Shown here: piece by piece, positions 2,367-64,000 of the stretch
Numbering within the stretch: the first letter of the stretch is position 1
How the letters are laid out: every line of letters starts with the position of its first letter
Source of the DNA: Rhizobium sp. Q54
Lineage (GTDB): Bacteria > Pseudomonadota > Alphaproteobacteria > Micropepsales > Micropepsaceae
NCBI GenBank assembly: GCA_945882615.1
Contig: CAMCWK010000016.1
Coordinates: 1 to 64,000, forward strand
Direction: 5' to 3'
DNA: 64,000 nucleotides
Made by a program: the position numbers and the translations under genes
Notes under the pieces: model-generated
The model's database searches: none
What the model was told of the DNA's origin: nothing
The model's input: the letters and a program-made list of their open reading frames with translations, nothing else

Positions 2367-3572
2367 TTAAAACAACGCGGCGACCATATCCTTGCCGCCA
2401 TAATCCTCGATAAAGATCAGCACGCGATAGCCATCGGTCATTCGCAAGTTCCCATTGCGGCCAACCATCAACGCGCCCTTGTTACTCATGGTGCGCGTGG
2501 CTTTGTTGTAGGCAAAGCGCGGCACTTGCCCACGATAGTTGGCGCGGATCAGGGTTTGTAGTGTCTCGGCATTTTCCGGTGACAGATGGATGCAGCCGGC
2601 GCTGTTGCGCGTGCCAAGCTTTGCGATGTTCTCGCCGCTGGCGGCATGAATGGCCAGGCCCGTCTGCAAACCCTGCCGCTCCCAGTTGAAGAACATGGCG
2701 TTGGGCATGGGCTGGTCCCAGCTGTAAGAGCGATAGCGCCGATACATGCGCTTGGGATCAAGCTGGTAATAGCCAGCAGGCGTGGCGGTGAAACTGGGGC
2801 GGCCCCGCGCGTTGGTTTCGCTCTTCTCGCGCCCCGTCGAGGCCGCCCAATCATAGGCCAACGAAAGCGTGTCACCTTGCGTCTTCTTGAACACATACAT
2901 GCGCTGTGCCAGCGGACCGGACGCCGCCTTGCTGACATACAGAAACAGATCGAAATTCTTCAACATGTCCGGCGAAAGCCCCGCCTTCAGGCGCATGTTG
3001 GCCGCCATAGCGCGGCCCGCCATCGGCGCGTCGGGCAACGGCGGATCGGGAATGCGCCAAGAGGGTGCGGCCTGTTTCGCCGGAACCCCTCTTTCAGGAG
3101 GCTTGGCGATACGAATATCCGGCGCCACCGCGCGCGGCATCCTGGGTGTCGCCAACTTCGGCTCCGGCGGCTCCGGCAGATCGTCAGGCAGGTCGGGCAA
3201 TATCTCGATGATGGCGGACGGGCCATATTCATTTTCCGCCAGGAACGTTTCGGCGGGGGCCAGCGCACGCGGCGCAACAGGAGCAGATGGCCGCGTCATC
3301 AGCAGGCGTTCTTCACCCGGCACCAGGGGCCGAATGGTAAGGCGCGCCACCGGCTCATGGCGCTGATCCAGGCTGTCCAATAGCGCCACGTCATGGTTGC
3401 GAATCCGGTCCAGCGCCGGGTTCAGCACCTGGCGCGCGAACGTGTCGGACAGGAGCTGTCCGCGTGCCCCCAAATCCCGCCAAAGATCGGGATGGGACTT
3501 CACAACACCGGTCAGGGTGAAGACCGATGCCGCAGCAAGGTAGGACAAGGCCAGGAGACGTAAGGTAGACAT
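2367..3572 (-). CDS. L,D-transpeptidase (YkuD domain) envelope protein
   Basis: Predicted periplasmic, membrane-anchored L,D-transpeptidase that forms or modifies peptidoglycan cross-links. Residues 5-22 form an N-terminal hydrophobic signal/anchor. About residues 75-190 are a Pro/Ala-rich linker. The YkuD catalytic domain occupies the C-terminal half, with the family signature around H309 and the nucleophile C327 in NSAGCIHL. The canonical form is S/T-H-G-C; here the residue before Gly is Ala, a modest variation. Convergent with the small membrane-peptide gene, whose stop lies 10 bases from this gene's stop. Substrate specificity cannot be read from sequence. Confidence 0.88.
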   Translation of the reverse strand: MSTLRLLALSYLAAASVFTLTGVVKSHPDLWRDLGARGQLLSDTFARQVLNPALDRIRNHDVALLDSLDQRHEPVARLTIRPLVPGEERLLMTRPSAPVAPRALAPAETFLAENEYGPSAIIEILPDLPDDLPEPPEPKLATPRMPRAVAPDIRIAKPPERGVPAKQAAPSWRIPDPPLPDAPMAGRAMAANMRLKAGLSPDMLKNFDLFLYVSKAASGPLAQRMYVFKKTQGDTLSLAYDWAASTGREKSETNARGRPSFTATPAGYYQLDPKRMYRRYRSYSWDQPMPNAMFFNWERQGLQTGLAIHAASGENIAKLGTRNSAGCIHLSPENAETLQTLIRANYRGQVPRFAYNKATRTMSNKGALMVGRNGNLRMTDGYRVLIFIEDYGGKDMVAALF

Positions 3573-3673: not shown

Positions 3674-5917
3674 TCAATTCTCGCCAAATTTGCCGCTCTT
3701 GGCCCAGCCGCGCGGGACAATTCGGCCCGCCTGGGCACGCTCGCCGCGCCAATCCTTGAGCTCGGCAGACTCGAACAGCCGGCCATTCTCATCCTTCAGC
3801 CCGCTCTTCCAGGTGAAGGTGGCGGCATCGATCAAGCCGCCATCCTTGTAACGCTGCAGATAAACCCCCTGCCCGCGCGCCAGCTCGGGCACTTCGTCCA
3901 GCTTGAAGATCAGCAGCTTGCGGTTCTCGCCCACCACCGCGACGCTGTCGCCGGTCACGGCGCGGCAGGAAATCGCTTCCACGCCCGGCTTCACATTCAT
4001 CACCCGTTTGCCGTTCTTGGTCATGGCGACCGCTTCGTCCTCGTTGGTGACGAAGCCATGGCCGGAGGTCGCCGCGACCAGCAGCTTGCGGCCCGGCACA
4101 TGGACGAACATGGTGACGATGTCGGCATCGGGCGGCAGGTCGATGAAGGTGCGGATGGCTTCGCCATTGCCACGGCCGCCCGGAAGCTTGGAACCATCCA
4201 GGGTGAAGAAGCGGCCATCGGTGGCCAAGAGCATGATCTGGTCGGTGGTCTGGGCGTGGAACCAGAAACGGGCGCGGTCGCCTTCGCGATACTTGTCGTC
4301 CTTGGATTGCTCCTTGTGGCCCGTCAGCGCGCGCAACCAGCCCTTGGCGGAACAGACCACCGTGATGGGTTCGCGCTCCACCGCATTGGCGCGTTCCTCG
4401 ACATGCTCGGCCAGCGCCGACAGTTCGGCGACATCAGCGGCGGCGGCAATCTGGGTGCGGCGCTTGCCGATAACGGTCTTGAGGCCGAACTTGGCGTCCA
4501 CCGCCTTCAATTCGTCAATCAGCCTTTCCGACTTGAGCTTCTCGGAGCCCATCAGTTTGGTGATCTCCTTGCGCTCCTTGGTCAGCGCGTCATGTTCGCC
4601 GCGGATTTCCATCTCCTCCAGCTTGCGCAACGACCGCAGCCGCATGTTGAGGATGGCGTCAGCCTGCACCTCGTTGAGGCTGAAGGCTTTCATCAGCTTG
4701 GGCTTGGGCTCGTCCTCGGTGCGGATGATCCTGATCACCTTGTCGAGGTTGAGGAAGACCGCCAGATAGCCTTCCAGCACTTCCAGCCGCGCCCGTATCT
4801 TCTCGAGGCGGAAGGCGGAGCGGCGCTCCAGCACTTCGCGGCGATGCGCGGCGAAGGCGGCCAGGACCTCCTTCAGGCTCATCACCCGGGGGACGAGCCC
4901 GCGATCCAGCACATTCATGTTCAGCGAGATGCGCGCTTCCAGGTCGGAGGCGCGGAATAGCTGCTCCATCAGGATTTCCGGCTCGACCACCCGGCTCTTG
5001 GGCGTCAGAACGATACGGATATCTTCGGCGCTTTCGTCGTGAATATCGTCCAGCAGCGGCAGCTTCTTGAGTTCCAGCAGTTCGGCGATGCGCTCGATCA
5101 GCTTGGACTTCTGCACCTGATAGGGAATTTCGGTGACCACGATCTGATAGGTGCCGCGCGAGCCCTCTTCCTTTTCCCAGCGCGCCCGCACCCGGAAGGA
5201 ACCGCGGCCGGTCTTGTAGGCTTCGGCCATGCTGGCCTGTTCTTCGACAATGATGCCGCCGGTGGGAAAATCAGGGCCCTTGACGAACTTCAGCAGGCCG
5301 CGGTCCTGCATATTGGGGTTTTCGATCAGCGCGATGGTGGCGGCGCACAGCTCACCCAGATTGTGCGGCGGGATCGAGGTCGCCATGCCGACGGCGATGC
5401 CGTTGGAGCCGTTGGCCAGCAAGTTCGGAAACGCCGCCGGCAGTACTACCGGCTCCTGGGTCTCACCGTCATAGGTGGTGCGAAAGTCCACCGCATTCTC
5501 GTCCAGGCCTTCCAGCAGGGCCTGGGCTGCCGCTGTCATGCGGCTTTCGGTGTAGCGCATGGCGGCGGCGTTATCGCCGTCGACATTGCCGAAATTGCCC
5601 TGCCCGTCCACCAGCGGATAGCGAACGGAAAAATCCTGGGCCAGACGCACCAGCGCGTCATAGATCGCCTGGTCGCCATGGGGATGGAAGCTGCCCATCA
5701 CATCGCCGACCACCTTGGCGGATTTCTTGAACGCCGAATCCGGGTCCAGCCGCAGCAGCCGCATGCCGAACAGGATGCGGCGGTGGACCGGCTTCAGCCC
5801 GTCGCGCACATCAGGCAGCGCCCGCTGGGTGATGGTGGACAGCGCATAGGCCAGATAGCGCTCGGCCAGCGCCTTGCTGAGATTTTCGGAACGGATTTCA
5901 TCGGGAAGAGCAACCAT
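3674..5917 (-). CDS. parC: DNA topoisomerase IV subunit A
   Basis: Type IIA topoisomerase breakage-reunion subunit that decatenates daughter chromosomes with ParE. At 747 residues it has the ParC length. The N-terminus carries the winged-helix catalytic region ending in MRYTESRM with the active-site Tyr122, followed by the tower and coiled-coil regions and a C-terminal beta-pinwheel from about residue 500. The GyrA-box QRRGGKG is absent, which favours ParC over GyrA. It is the last gene of the long minus-strand series, 29 bases after recO. Confidence 0.95.
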
Positions 5918-57152: not shown

Positions 57153-60720
<3,568 letters not shown>

Positions 60721-61135
60721 TGCTGAAGGGCCTGCGCTTCCAGAAGCGGCTGCGCATCTTTCCCGGCCTCAGGATCAACCTGTCCAAGAGCGGGGCTTCG
60801 ACCACCCTGGGGCCGCGCGGCGCCGGCGTGAATATCGGCAAGGACGGCATCACCACCAATGCGGGCATTCCCGGCACTGGCCTGTCCTACCGCCAGAAGC
60901 TTGGCGGTGGCCGGGGCTGGCTCGGCGTGGTGCTGCTGGTCGCTGCGCTGGGCTGGTGGGCTTTCCAGAACAAGGATGTGATCGCCTCGTATCTCGCCCC
61001 CCCAGGCGTTCAGACCGGCGCCCAGATGGGCATCCATGCGCCTGTAAACACGGGGGCGCCCGGGCTGCGCTATGTCCGGCGCGATGGATCGGTTATTCGT
61101 GAAGAACCAAGCACTTCGGCGGCAACTCTCAAGAA

Positions 61136-61143
61136 AGAGTCGA
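61136..61143. repeat. Target site duplication, left copy
   Basis: AGAGTCGA directly abuts the left IS end and is repeated exactly at 62960-62967. Eight base pairs is the length expected for IS1595-family insertions. Confidence 0.93.
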
Positions 61144-61166
61144 GGGGTTTATATAGTATAGTGACC
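61144..61166 (+). repeat. Left terminal inverted repeat of the IS
   Basis: Begins GGGGTTTATATA and ends GTGACC. 18 of 23 positions match the reverse complement of the right end (62937-62959). Confidence 0.9.
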
Positions 61167-61191
61167 TAAGAAATCAGACGGGTCACCCTAA

Positions 61192-62100
61192 ATGCCTACC
61201 GCGCCTAAGGAATTTGCCAGCCTCCTCGAACTGACCACGGCCATCCCGGACGAGGCCGCCGCCATCGCCCATTTCACGGCGATCCGCTGGAAGAACGGCG
61301 AGTACTGCCCCTACTGCGGCCATGACAAGATTTACCACTTCAGCAACCTGCGGTCGCATAAGTGCGCCCAGTGCAAGGCCCGTTTTTCGATCAAAGTTGG
61401 GACCATTTTCGAGGACTCCAAACTGCCCCTCCGCACTTGGATGCTGGCGGTCTGGTTCATCTCCTCCCACAAGAAGGGCATCGCCAGCACCCAGTTGGCT
61501 AAGGACTTGAACGTCACCCAGAAGACGGCTTGGTTCATGATGCACCGCCTCCGCCATGCCGCCCGTACCCGGTCCTTCAATCGCCGCCTCAAGGGCGACG
61601 TAGAGGCCGATGAGACGTTCGTGGGCGGCAAGGACAAGAACCGGGTTACCCGCAAGCGTGGCGACAAGGCCAAGGCTGTGGTCATGGGGATGCTGGAGCG
61701 TAACGGCGAACTCCGCGCCTTCCAGATCGAAAAGGCTTGGGACGTTATCAAGGAAGTGGACAAGCATATTGAACCGGGTTCGCGCCTCCTGACGGACGAA
61801 TATCAGCCCTACCGTAAGGCCGCCCGTCAGACCGGCTTAGACCATGGCGCGGTTAAGCACAGCGGCGGCGAGTATGTCCGTGGCGATGTCCACTGCAATT
61901 CGATTGAGGGTTACTGGTCGCAGTTGAAGCGCCAGATTTTCGGTATCCATCACTGGGTTAGCCGCAAACACCTTAACCGCTATGTTGGTGAAAGCGTCTG
62001 GCGGTATAATCGCCGGGATGTGACCGAGCAGTTCCGGTTCAATGAAATACTCGCGGTCACTTGCGGAAGCCGCCTGACGTACCCGGAGTTGATCGCATGA
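61192..62100 (+). CDS. IS1595-family (ISXO2-like) transposase
   Basis: 302 residues. An N-terminal zinc ribbon has CPYCGHDKIYHF and CAQCKARFS. A HTH-like region follows (ISSHKKGIASTQLAKDLNVT, QKTAWFMMHRLRHA). The ISXO2-type DDE domain has the acidic residues in GDVEADETFVGGK, LLTDEYQPYRKA and CNSIEGYWSQLKRQIFG (Glu as the third residue). ATG is 26 bases inside the left repeat. The stop overlaps the next ORF by 4 bases (ATGA). No frameshift or truncation, so it is likely functional. Confidence 0.93.
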   Translation: MPTAPKEFASLLELTTAIPDEAAAIAHFTAIRWKNGEYCPYCGHDKIYHFSNLRSHKCAQCKARFSIKVGTIFEDSKLPLRTWMLAVWFISSHKKGIASTQLAKDLNVTQKTAWFMMHRLRHAARTRSFNRRLKGDVEADETFVGGKDKNRVTRKRGDKAKAVVMGMLERNGELRAFQIEKAWDVIKEVDKHIEPGSRLLTDEYQPYRKAARQTGLDHGAVKHSGGEYVRGDVHCNSIEGYWSQLKRQIFGIHHWVSRKHLNRYVGESVWRYNRRDVTEQFRFNEILAVTCGSRLTYPELIA

Positions 62101-62327
62101 CCGCCAGACCTCCAAAGGAAGTTTTTCTAGGCTTGGATATGCCCTTCGGTGAGGCCCTGGAACGCTATATCGGCGTCAACCCGAAAGAGTTGGAAGCCAA
62201 TATCGCCAAGGACAAATCGAAAAAGCCGCCGGGTGCCAAGAAAAAGAAGGCACCCGGCGCAAAGGCTAAGAACGTGATTTCACTGAAGGAGCGAAAGACG
62301 GCGCTTCGCCGTCGTGGGCGCGCGTGA
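62097..62327 (+). CDS. Small basic companion ORF of the IS element
   Basis: 76 residues coupled to the transposase by an ATGA overlap. The N-terminal half, VFLGLDMPFGEALERYIGVN, looks like a short folded helix pair, and the C-terminal half is Lys/Arg-rich (KSKKPPGAKKKKAPGAKAK, then RRRGRA). I recall similar MPFxEALxRxxxVxPKEL proteins next to IS1595-type transposases but know no function. Nucleic-acid binding is a reasonable guess from charge. The 3' end overlaps a GACGGCG/CGCCGTC hairpin. Confidence 0.7.
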   Translation: MTARPPKEVFLGLDMPFGEALERYIGVNPKELEANIAKDKSKKPPGAKKKKAPGAKAKNVISLKERKTALRRRGRA

Positions 62328-62936
62328 CGGAAGATTCCGCCAATGCCCAACGACAAGTTCGAGACGGCAGAAGCGGATGCGGTAGTACGGTTCAATCCAA
62401 AGCATGACGTTGGCCCTCCTTAGGCCATAGGGGATCGACCGCCGGAACGTGAGTCGGCACACGCTTGCTTGAGACAAGCGTGTGCGACCGCGCTAAGCGG
62501 TTTGGTTACGTGTTGACGATGGTGAAAGCCCTGATGCGCTCAGGGAGAGCGGGCGCCCGATTACGCCCGGCGGCAGCGCAGCCCGGGAAGCGTCCCGGTG
62601 GCGGTTAGGTTTTTAGACCAGCGAAAACGCGTCGCTATTAACTAAAGGGGAACGGCGTTAAGCGACTGTCCGCGCTAAGGAATCTGACATTCCTCTCAGG
62701 ACTGTGGGGTATGGCTCCGCCAGTGGAGGGTGAAACACCCCGCCACCTTCAGGAACCTAGGCTCCCGCACCAGACGGGAGTCGCCTCCCGATCCAGTACG
62801 ATGCGGTCTTTGCCGGAGTCTTTCTTCTTCTTATGGCGACGCCGGGTGTTCCGCCTGCCCTGATAAGGGCCTCTTTCGAGGAGTCCGAATCTGGGTCAGT
62901 ACCGGAAACCTATGCCCGTTTTGCAAATGCGACAAG
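62328..62936 (+). ncRNA. Candidate large structured noncoding segment of the IS
   Basis: About 610 bases between the small ORF and the right repeat. No ORF fits the genome's codon use. At least seven local hairpins are visible: CACACGCTTG/CAAGCGTGTG (62458-62484), CCCTGA/TCAGGG (62529-62545), GGGCG/CGCCC (62551-62568), CCGGGA/TCCCGG with AGCG loop (62583-62598), GTGG-GGGTG/CACCC-CCAC (62723-62746), CTCCCG/CGGGAG (62762-62780), and tandem GCCC/GGGC and CCTC/GAGG (62857-62881). Transcription and function are not shown by sequence; no known RNA class was recognised. Confidence 0.4.
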
Positions 62937-62959
62937 GGTCACAGTGATATATAAACGCC
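62937..62959 (-). repeat. Right terminal inverted repeat of the IS
   Basis: On the minus strand it starts GGCGTTTATATATCAC and ends GTGACC, pairing with the left end at 18 of 23 positions. Confidence 0.9.
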
Positions 62960-62967
62960 AGAGTCGA
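62960..62967. repeat. Target site duplication, right copy
   Basis: AGAGTCGA, identical to 61136-61143. Confidence 0.93.
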
Positions 62968-63077
62968 AGGGTGCGCAGGTCAGGTTGATCCAGGAAAACG
63001 GCGGCTGGGCCAAGGTGACGGACGGCAACATCACCGGCTTCATGCGCGCCAGCACGCTGGACTCCACAAGGCCCTAA
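62968..63077 (+). pseudogene. DUF4236/SH3 protein gene, 3' remnant
   Basis: Joining base 61143 directly to 62968 gives KKES-KGAQVRLIQENGG and then WAKVTDGNITGFMRASTLD to a TAA at 63075-63077. This completes the bacterial SH3 domain (the GWAKV...GFMRASTL strands are typical) and restores a 177-codon gene with no frameshift. The remnant has no start of its own and is presumably not translated. Confidence 0.88.
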
Positions 63078-63775
63078 GACCGGGCCAGCCGGTCGGCGAT
63101 GATGCGCTGAACCTGCGGGTTGGAGCAGATCGACATGTGCGCCCCGCTCACCTCCACAACCTCCACTTGAGGTCCGGCCTGCGGGCGTGCGGCTTCCCAT
63201 TCGATGATGCCGTCGTCGCGGCTGATGATGGCGGTCAACGGCACCGGCGGCGGCTCGGCGATGGCCGCCAGGTCCCTGATCTCCTGCGCATCCCACAGCA
63301 AAGCAGCGGCCTGGGCCAGCGGCGCCAGCGGCGTCACCACCGGCAGGTGGATGGGGCTGACCACCGTGATCACCCGCGCGATCCGGTCCGGGCAGGCCTT
63401 GGCCACCTGCCGGGCGACGGTACCGCCCAGACTGACGCCCACCAGCGACACGGGCCGGCCTTCGCGTTCCGCCAGATCGCAGATCTGCTTCTGAAGCCCG
63501 GCCATGACATGGCGCACCGGACCCAGATTGACCCCGCTGGTCCAGGATACGGGACGGAAATTCTGCCCGGAGAGAAAATCGCGCAGCCGCCCGGTGGACA
63601 TGTCGGGGGCGAGGAAGCCGGGTACGACGATCACGGGCTGGCCGGCGCCGCGCGCCGCATCGTCCGGAAAAGGGGGCGGCGACAGCGTGGCCTGGGTCAG
63701 GGCCATCATTTCGCGCGCCAGGGTGGCCGGCGAGACGCTGGCGTGAGACGGCGGCCAGACAGCGAAGCCGCTCAA
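63074..63775 (-). CDS. Alpha/beta hydrolase
   Basis: 233 residues. VIVVPGFLAPDMSTGRL starts the fold, the nucleophile elbow is LVGVSLGGTVARQVA, an Asp follows in IISRDDGIIEWEAA, and the His is probably in SGAHMSICSNP. The pattern resembles lipase/PGAP1-like hydrolases. The start is a TTG 4 bases after the argG stop; an internal ATG about 22 codons on is possible. It overlaps the DUF4236 remnant tail by 4 bases, convergently. Substrate unknown. Confidence 0.82.
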   Translation of the reverse strand: MSGFAVWPPSHASVSPATLAREMMALTQATLSPPPFPDDAARGAGQPVIVVPGFLAPDMSTGRLRDFLSGQNFRPVSWTSGVNLGPVRHVMAGLQKQICDLAEREGRPVSLVGVSLGGTVARQVAKACPDRIARVITVVSPIHLPVVTPLAPLAQAAALLWDAQEIRDLAAIAEPPPVPLTAIISRDDGIIEWEAARPQAGPQVEVVEVSGAHMSICSNPQVQRIIADRLARS

Positions 63776-63778
63776 GCG

Positions 63779-64000
63779 CTATTTCCCAACTTTGCGCTTG
63801 CGCATGGCCAGGGTCCGCAGGCGCAGGGCGTTGAGCTTGATGAAGCCCGCCGCGTCCTTCTGGTCATAGGCGCCCTGGTCGTCCTCGAAGGTCACCAGGC
63901 TTTCGCTGTAGAGCGACAGGGGCGAGGAACGGCCCACCACCTCGGTATTGCCCTTGTAGAGCTTCAGCCGGACCGTGCCGGTGACATATTCCTGGCTGCG
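63779..64000 (-). CDS. argG: Argininosuccinate synthase, C-terminal part (runs off window)
   Basis: Joins citrulline and aspartate in arginine synthesis. The 73 visible residues include [31 protein letters not shown] and [15 protein letters not shown] before the TAG stop, matching the ArgG C-terminal oligomerisation region. The N-terminal catalytic part lies beyond base 64000. The hydrolase gene follows closely and may be cotranscribed. Confidence 0.93.

What the first reader, a model, noticed from the sequence alone, without database searches (positions are those of the whole stretch)
62328..62936. About 600 bases of hairpin-rich noncoding sequence carried by the IS element
Simple IS1595 elements are mostly transposase. 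Here a third of the element is noncoding yet dense in GC-rich stems with short loops (at least seven, up to 10 bp perfect), arranged in series from the small ORF to the right end. This looks like a large structured RNA or a folded DNA region retained by selection. It could be a regulatory RNA, an RNA partner of the transposase or small basic protein, or an intron-like segment that lets the host gene be expressed. I do not recognise it as HEARO/omegaRNA, a group I or group II intron, GOLLD or ROOL, but cannot rule these out without a covariance search.
Basis: partly seen in the sequence, partly recalled or inferred. Interest (0 to 1): 0.78.

Follow-up and report, generated by a model that had tools for sequence, protein, structure and literature searches.

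The report
Hairpin-rich cargo tail of IS1595 element
A jumping gene in an alphaproteobacterium carries, at its right end, a tiny protein gene on the opposite strand preceded by about 530 bases of hairpin-rich non-coding DNA; some related elements keep the same layout, but what it does is untested.

Summary
The hairpin-rich stretch is real, but its boundaries and reading must change. The element is a complete IS1595-family insertion (61144-62959, 8-bp target duplication). About 530 nt (62406-62936) remain without coding signal and hold more hairpins than shuffles; the minus strand folds clearly better than the plus. Tails upstream of mORF in 11 distinct elements also fold better than shuffles on at least one strand, without a consistent strand. 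Rfam has no match. One viral-collection contig (L164) shares the strongest hairpin: identical 7-nt loop, 6 of 11 stem pairs changed on both sides; 0 of 200 shuffles gave a shared loop. Of 27 elements with a transposase near 50% identity or more, 9 carry mORF; the rest carry other cargo or are cut or degenerate, so the tail is exchangeable. Best reading: a structured, fast-evolving 5' leader (or leader-derived RNA) of the mORF gene, transcribed inward from the right end. A Shine-Dalgarno-masking switch and target-matching guide RNA were tested and not supported. Function remains inferred.

The parts
61136..61143 (.). left copy of the 8-bp target-site duplication AGAGTCGA
61144..61166 (+). left terminal inverted repeat, GGGGTTTATATAG...
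   Evidence: 15 of 20 bases match the right end; element is 61144-62959, 1816 bp
61192..62100 (+). IS1595-family transposase (zinc ribbon + DDE domain)
   Evidence: Pfam PF12762 E 1.2e-35 and PF12760 E 2.3e-10; NCBIfam NF033547 E 3.2e-58
62097..62327 (+). sORF: 76-aa basic small protein, start overlaps the transposase stop (ATGA); LDMxFGEALxRF module plus KKPPG repeats
   Evidence: alignment of 9 sequences, window included; profile hits in relatives
62280..62405 (-). mORF: 41-codon convergent microprotein gene MLWIEPYYRIR...
   Evidence: codon-position differences 88/42/151 over 10 pairs of 5 homologues; amino-acid identity reached by 0/400 simulations for 9 of 10 pairs, 9/400 for the tenth; profile hits incl. 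L164 (1.2e-17) and L158 (7.4e-16), not in the profile
62415..62420 (-). Shine-Dalgarno AGGAGG of mORF, 9 nt before its ATG; straddles loop and 3' arm of a small predicted hairpin 62411-62427
62406..62936 (-). hairpin-rich non-coding region upstream of mORF, read here as structured leader/ncRNA of the minus strand
   Evidence: minus z -4.54 over 535 nt, plus z -1.65; sliding windows
62457..62485 (-). H1: 11-bp perfect hairpin, loop UCUCAAG on the minus strand, shared with L164
62438..62501 (-). outer stem around H1 (62496-62501 with 62438-62443), entered by CCAAACC
   Evidence: predicted fold; similar arrangement in L164, two sequences only
62760..62782 (.). second strong hairpin, 8 bp (G-T allowed) with loop CACCAGA
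62810..62820 (.). TTGCCGGAGTC, 11 nt also found near the right end of L164
   Evidence: chance not excluded (two sequences)
62937..62959 (-). right terminal inverted repeat, GGCGTTTATATAT... read inward
62960..62967 (.). right copy of the target-site duplication AGAGTCGA

Best explanation
The stretch belongs to an exchangeable right-end cargo module of IS1595-family elements: plus-strand small basic ORF (sORF), then a convergent minus-strand microprotein gene (mORF), then a hairpin-rich non-coding region up to the right inverted repeat or, in some relatives, up to a further passenger gene. Shown: the element and its ends, the coding nature of mORF, the hairpin excess, its recurrence upstream of mORF in relatives, and one shared hairpin with compensatory changes (two sequences). 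Inferred: a transcript starts just inside the right end and runs leftward. Its first ~500 nt form a structured 5' leader (possibly also accumulating as an RNA of its own), and the Shine-Dalgarno and mORF follow. This RNA is antisense to the end of the transposase-sORF transcript, so it may set the level of mORF and of the transposase operon together. The structure is under weak sequence constraint, so it diverges fast while hairpins are kept.
For: mORF is coding: codon-position differences 88/42/151, and its Shine-Dalgarno score is high (mean 4.55 of 6 over 11 mORFs, vs 3.28 over 103 automatically placed transposase starts; perfect in the window). A gene on that strand needs a transcript through 62406-62936 or a promoter within it. 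In the window the structure excess is on the minus strand. Tails upstream of mORF in 11 elements: mean z -3.68 (-) and -3.78 (+), against -0.73 for 62 control values (31 places of the window, both strands); Mann-Whitney p 1.1e-5 (-) and 6.0e-6 (+); each of the 11 reaches z -2.19 or lower on at least one strand. H1 is shared with L164: same 7-nt loop, starting 63 and 62 nt before the mORF start (positions); 11 Watson-Crick pairs in both after leaving out one bulged A of L164, 6 changed on both sides; 0 of 200 shuffles of the 11 tails gave any shared loop of 6 nt or more in stems of 7 bp or more. sORF and mORF are also found in L066 and L164, where tblastn finds no transposase in the locus.
Against: No transcript data. 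No sigma-70-like promoter was found in 61140-63000 by consensus scan. Across the 11 tails there is no strand preference (paired p 0.70), so DNA structure or plus-strand RNA is not excluded. Single strands are weak in places: L164 plus z -1.29 (10/100 shuffles as low), L069 minus z -1.17 (14/100), window plus 4/100; and 19% of the control values also lie below -2, the lowest at -3.92. L063, a degenerate mORF copy, shows no hairpin excess (z +0.66 and +1.43); it was left out. A Shine-Dalgarno-masking switch was tested and not supported: SD unpaired 0.36 vs 0.36 in shuffles, 0 of 11 in the lowest tenth, and in the window and L067 the site is more open than in nearly all shuffles. The homology of the hairpin rests on two sequences. 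On the MAFFT alignment, in which a gap shifts the outer pairs, covariation is reached by 65 of 500 shuffles.
Confidence: 0.42

Rival explanations
1. Plus-strand RNA: the stretch is the structured 3' end of the transposase-sORF transcript, protecting it or being cut into a small RNA.
For: Plus-strand folds are as strong as minus-strand ones over the 11 tails. By eye several relatives (L002, L072, L075, L082, L158) have a hairpin followed by a run of T on the plus strand; no scan was run on them.
Against: In the window the plus strand is close to background and the scan reports no plus-strand terminator in 61140-63000.
Confidence: 0.2
2. DNA-level palindromes: binding sites for the element's basic small proteins or the transposase, or single-strand hairpins used in transposition.
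For: Hairpins are strong on both strands across relatives; the 11-bp perfect palindrome in the window and long ones in L002 and L075.
Against: Positions and sequences differ between elements. 18 of 27 elements with a similar transposase show no intact mORF by profile or by eye (two of them incomplete, one degenerate), so it is not needed for transposition in general. Minus-strand excess in the window argues for RNA.
Confidence: 0.17
3. A trans-acting structured RNA that forms a complex with the basic mORF and/or sORF proteins, a selfish or regulatory ribonucleoprotein.
For: Two basic small proteins sit beside it; the group is found without a detectable transposase in the L066 and L164 loci.
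Against: No Rfam match; primary sequence is hardly conserved (blastn matches of the window tail to relatives end at or near the mORF start). No RNA-binding domain is recognised: Pfam and NCBIfam empty for both proteins.
Confidence: 0.1
4. Neutral remnant: decayed cargo gene whose GC-rich DNA happens to fold.
For: Tail content differs often among relatives; 19% of control values of the window also lie at z below -2.
Against: Hairpin counts exceed dinucleotide shuffles; recurrence in 11 elements; shared hairpin with compensatory changes; no trace of a gene.
Confidence: 0.11

Closest known systems
IS1595-family elements with passenger genes
   Same: Zinc-ribbon plus DDE_Tnp_IS1595 transposase, inverted repeats, 8-bp duplication. 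PMC8101967 (passages seen) gives usually 8-bp duplications and a single transposase gene for the family.
   Different: Here the cargo is a small-ORF/convergent-microprotein pair with a hairpin-rich region; three relatives checked by Pfam carry DUF3800 (L005), RhuM (L085) or a HARE-HTH-like protein (L158, below the cut-off; this one beside the module).
IS200 tnpA structured leader, sRNA and antisense RNA
   Same: An insertion sequence with a structured leader and an antisense transcript (PMC12594629, passages seen).
   Different: There the leader belongs to the transposase and hides its ribosome-binding site; here it would belong to a convergent microprotein, and masking of the site was not supported.
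IS110 bridge RNA
   Same: Long non-coding end of an insertion sequence with structured RNA (PMC11208160, abstract and passages seen).
   Different: Different transposase class; no match between tail and target site clearly above shuffles in five elements tested; many transposase relatives lack the segment.
HEARO/omegaRNA, GOLLD, ROOL, group I and II introns
   Same: Large structured RNAs, several linked to mobile elements (recalled).
   Different: No Rfam match in the window stretch.

Membership tests
IS1595 family | DDE_Tnp_IS1595 domain and N-terminal zinc ribbon | tested here: met
   PF12762 E 1.2e-35, PF12760 E 2.3e-10; NF033547 E 3.2e-58
IS1595 family | terminal inverted repeats and 8-bp target duplication | tested here: met
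   15 of 20 end bases match, AGAGTCGA on both sides
Rfam families (HEARO/omegaRNA, GOLLD, ROOL, group I/II introns) | covariance-model match at gathering score | tested here: not met
   none at E<=1 in 60000-64000; best in 62380-62960 is E 2.6
IS110 bridge RNA | loops that pair with target and donor DNA | tested here: not met
   best ungapped target-tail match reached by 24/100 shuffles in the window; L002 74, L164 93 (right flank only), L083 93, L067 7 of 100; target side only, donor pairing not tested
Ribosome-site-masking leader (IS200 type) | upstream sequence pairs with the Shine-Dalgarno more than chance | tested here: not met
   0 of 11 mORFs in the lowest tenth of shuffles; mean 0.36 vs 0.36
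cis leader of mORF | minus-strand transcript covering region and mORF | not testable with these tools
   no RNA data held; consensus promoter scan empty
Conserved structured RNA | covariation over many homologues | tested here: inconclusive
   two sequences only: 6 of 11 pairs changed on both sides when anchored on the loop; 65/500 shuffles on the MAFFT alignment

The most novel reading that the evidence does not exclude
A hitherto undescribed mobile ribonucleoprotein module: a fast-evolving structured RNA of ~250-550 nt next to a basic, probably RNA-binding microprotein (mORF) and a second basic small protein (sORF), exchanged as a unit among IS1595 elements and also found in viral-collection contigs where no transposase was detected beside it.
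Probability: 0.13. Interest if true: 0.75.

Novelty: new variant of a known kind. Interest (0 to 1): 0.42.

Why it matters
Insertion sequences are usually treated as a transposase with ends, and IS1595 cargo as protein genes. A recurring unit of two small ORFs and a structured non-coding region, with other cargo in its place in relatives, would add a non-protein part to this cargo and a conserved microprotein gene that is easy to miss. It gives a concrete test: does the minus strand of the right end make a structured RNA, and does it control mORF or transposition? If the answer is no, the case still warns that 'non-coding' ends of such elements can hide coding sequence on the other strand.

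Tried and rejected
Not supported after tests: Shine-Dalgarno masking by the leader (first suspected by eye); target-matching guide RNA; tRNA or tmRNA in 61000-63100; decayed cargo gene; known Rfam class (also 20 of the loci then held, where only an RNase P and a tRNA outside the elements matched). RAGATH-25 at E 5.2 is a chance-level match. The block just after the small ORF that first looked like conserved RNA (blastn) turned out to be the minus-strand mORF.

Led nowhere: DNA searches for the segment, a match in 1 of 96 genomes of the order and 1 of 385 of the class, in both cases only the own genome; phages none; plasmids two short weak matches of about 40 nt, E 0.2 and 0.8; L164 tail in plasmids and phages, none; sORF in plasmids and mORF in plasmids and phages by tblastn, none. 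Pattern scans for the right-end motif or the shared hairpin returned L164's own contig and two contigs that look unrelated. A hand-made idea of a minus-strand promoter near the right repeat (TTGTCG/TAGGTT) rests on my eye only; the scan did not report it. One row was dropped: L063 (degenerate mORF), tested, not used. An early automatic mORF start in L158 was replaced by a later start.

Full report
What the element is. The window carries a complete IS1595-family insertion at 61144-62959 (1816 bp) with terminal inverted repeats and the 8-bp duplication AGAGTCGA on both sides. Its transposase has the zinc ribbon and DDE domain of the family. It interrupts a gene whose front part is DUF4236 (PF14020, E 2.3e-22) and whose rear part resembles SH3_3 (E 2.3e-5, 24.9 bits, just under the curated cut-off of 27). 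One copy was found in the genome. The host is inferred to be an alphaproteobacterium: a genome listed as 'same class' (G967) has the same match coordinates as G662, which came from the order of the genome holding L002, a record titled Hyphomicrobiales.

What the finding got right and wrong. Right of the transposase come a 76-aa small basic ORF (sORF, 62097-62327) whose start overlaps the transposase stop, and then the stretch of the finding. Its first 78 nt are not non-coding: on the minus strand they encode MLWIEPYYRIRFCRLELVVGHWRNLP, the front of a 41-codon gene (mORF, complement 62280-62405). Five homologues differ at codon positions 1/2/3 by 88/42/151 over their 10 pairs. In 9 of 10 pairs amino-acid identity exceeds every one of 400 simulations with the same number of changes; in the tenth 9 of 400 reach it. 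A profile built from nine mORFs finds L164 (E 1.2e-17) and L158 (E 7.4e-16), which were not in it. In all, 11 distinct elements carry mORF at E below 1e-10, on the strand opposite to sORF and right behind it; weaker hits are L031 (6.3e-5, degenerate), L091 (1.2e-4) and, on the plus strand, L089 (5.4e-4, not followed). Pfam and NCBIfam give nothing for the window's mORF; PHROGs gives phrog_21154, a 47-position family of unknown function, at E 0.0024.

The non-coding remainder. 62406-62936 has no coding signal (flat G+C by codon position; no Pfam match in the 10 of 17 fragments given). It is rich in hairpins beyond shuffles. In the window the excess is on the minus strand: 535 nt fold with z -4.54 (0/60) on minus and -1.65 (4/60) on plus. 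In 120-nt windows the strongest is 62406-62525 on minus, z -5.22 with 100 shuffles, against a background mean of -0.30. For the 11 tails upstream of mORF (203-300 nt each), z averages -3.78 on plus and -3.68 on minus, against -0.73 for 62 control values (31 places of the window, both strands; p 6.0e-6 and 1.1e-5), with no strand preference (p 0.70). Every tail reaches -2.19 or lower on at least one strand, but L164 plus (10/100) and L069 minus (14/100) are unremarkable, and 19% of control values lie below -2. The degenerate copy L063 shows no excess and was not.

A shared hairpin. In L164, an IMG/VR contig, the tail holds a hairpin whose 7-nt loop is identical (CTTGAGA on plus, UCUCAAG on minus) and begins 62 nt before the mORF start, against 63 nt in the window (positions). 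With one bulged A left out, 11 stem pairs are Watson-Crick in both; 6 are changed on both sides and 5 are the same. No loop of 6 nt or more in stems of 7 bp or more was shared between any of the 11 tails in 200 shuffles; the real set shares this one only. On a MAFFT alignment, where a gap displaces the outer pairs, 3 of 10 pairs change on both sides and 65 of 500 shuffles do as well. Two sequences cannot prove an RNA. An 11-mer, TTGCCGGAGTC, also lies near the right end in both.

Distribution. By profile 8 of the 20 and 1 of the 7 carry mORF. L078 is cut by its contig end, L108 matched only part of the transposase, L031 has a degenerate mORF, and L168 was judged by eye. Among close ones, L168 in the same genus (63%, 59% by tblastn) carries other ORFs instead, while L082 (59%, slightly better E-value) has the module. 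In L082 and L083 other sequence lies between transposase and sORF. Many more distant relatives carry protein cargo by ORF listing; Pfam confirms DUF3800 in L005. In L085 the sORF front module is fused to a RhuM-family protein. tblastn found no transposase in the L066 and L164 loci; in L164 sORF lies some 557 nt from the contig's end, so that element may be cut. The tail is therefore exchangeable cargo rather than transposition machinery.

How it most likely works. mORF needs a transcript from the right, and it has a perfect AGGAGG 9 nt before its start. The simplest reading is a long structured 5' leader transcribed inward from the right end, antisense to the end of the transposase-sORF transcript. 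That the leader regulates mORF is inferred. The specific idea that hairpins hide its ribosome-binding site failed its test: 0 of 11 in the lowest tenth of shuffles. Matching of the tail to the target site is within shuffles in the five elements tried, the best being L067 with 7 of 100. No sigma-70-like promoter was found by consensus, which is weak evidence in this class.

Literature. Seven searches of the held library (IS1595 with passenger and ISXO2; DUF3800 with RNA motif; IS1595 subgroup names; non-coding or structured RNA; fold-back inhibition, no paper; passenger and bridge RNA; small ORF and passenger genes) showed no title or abstract start describing this module among the papers listed. 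Several of the lists were capped, and only three papers were opened. Passages were read of PMC12594629 (IS200 leader, sRNA and antisense RNA), PMC8101967 (IS1595 and Merlin) and PMC11208160 (bridge RNA).

Verdict. It is a new variant of IS1595 cargo; its molecular role is open.

Noticed in passing
62280-62405, minus strand: Conserved 41-codon microprotein gene convergent to sORF; weakly like phrog_21154 of unknown function (E 0.0024).
   Followed up: yes
L085:4891-5943; L068, L073, L076 after the transposase: The LDMxFGEALxRF front of sORF is fused in frame to passenger proteins; RhuM family in L085 by Pfam (E 1.5e-68), the others by eye.
   Followed up: partly
L158:5549-6064; L072 about 3000-3400: HARE-HTH-like passenger gene (PF05066 E 0.0013 for L158, below the curated cut-off) beyond the hairpin-rich gap upstream of mORF; L072 judged alike by eye.
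   Followed up: partly
L072 about 2760-2880 and L158 about 5330-5400, plus strand: The gap between mORF and passenger holds a hairpin followed by GTCCGGTRACC and a terminator-like hairpin in both; possibly a separate small RNA (seen by eye).
   Followed up: no
transposase starts in 103 loci: Used as a control: 28 of 103 transposase starts (placed automatically) had a Shine-Dalgarno no more open than the lowest tenth of shuffles, about 10 expected; perhaps masking of the transposase start in this family.
   Followed up: no
L066:540-1110: sORF-mORF-hairpin unit in a viral-collection contig; no transposase in the locus and no clear right repeat found.
   Followed up: partly
60720-61142 and 62961-63074: Host gene with DUF4236 front and SH3_3-like rear is interrupted by the element; the joined reading frame is open.
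   Followed up: yes
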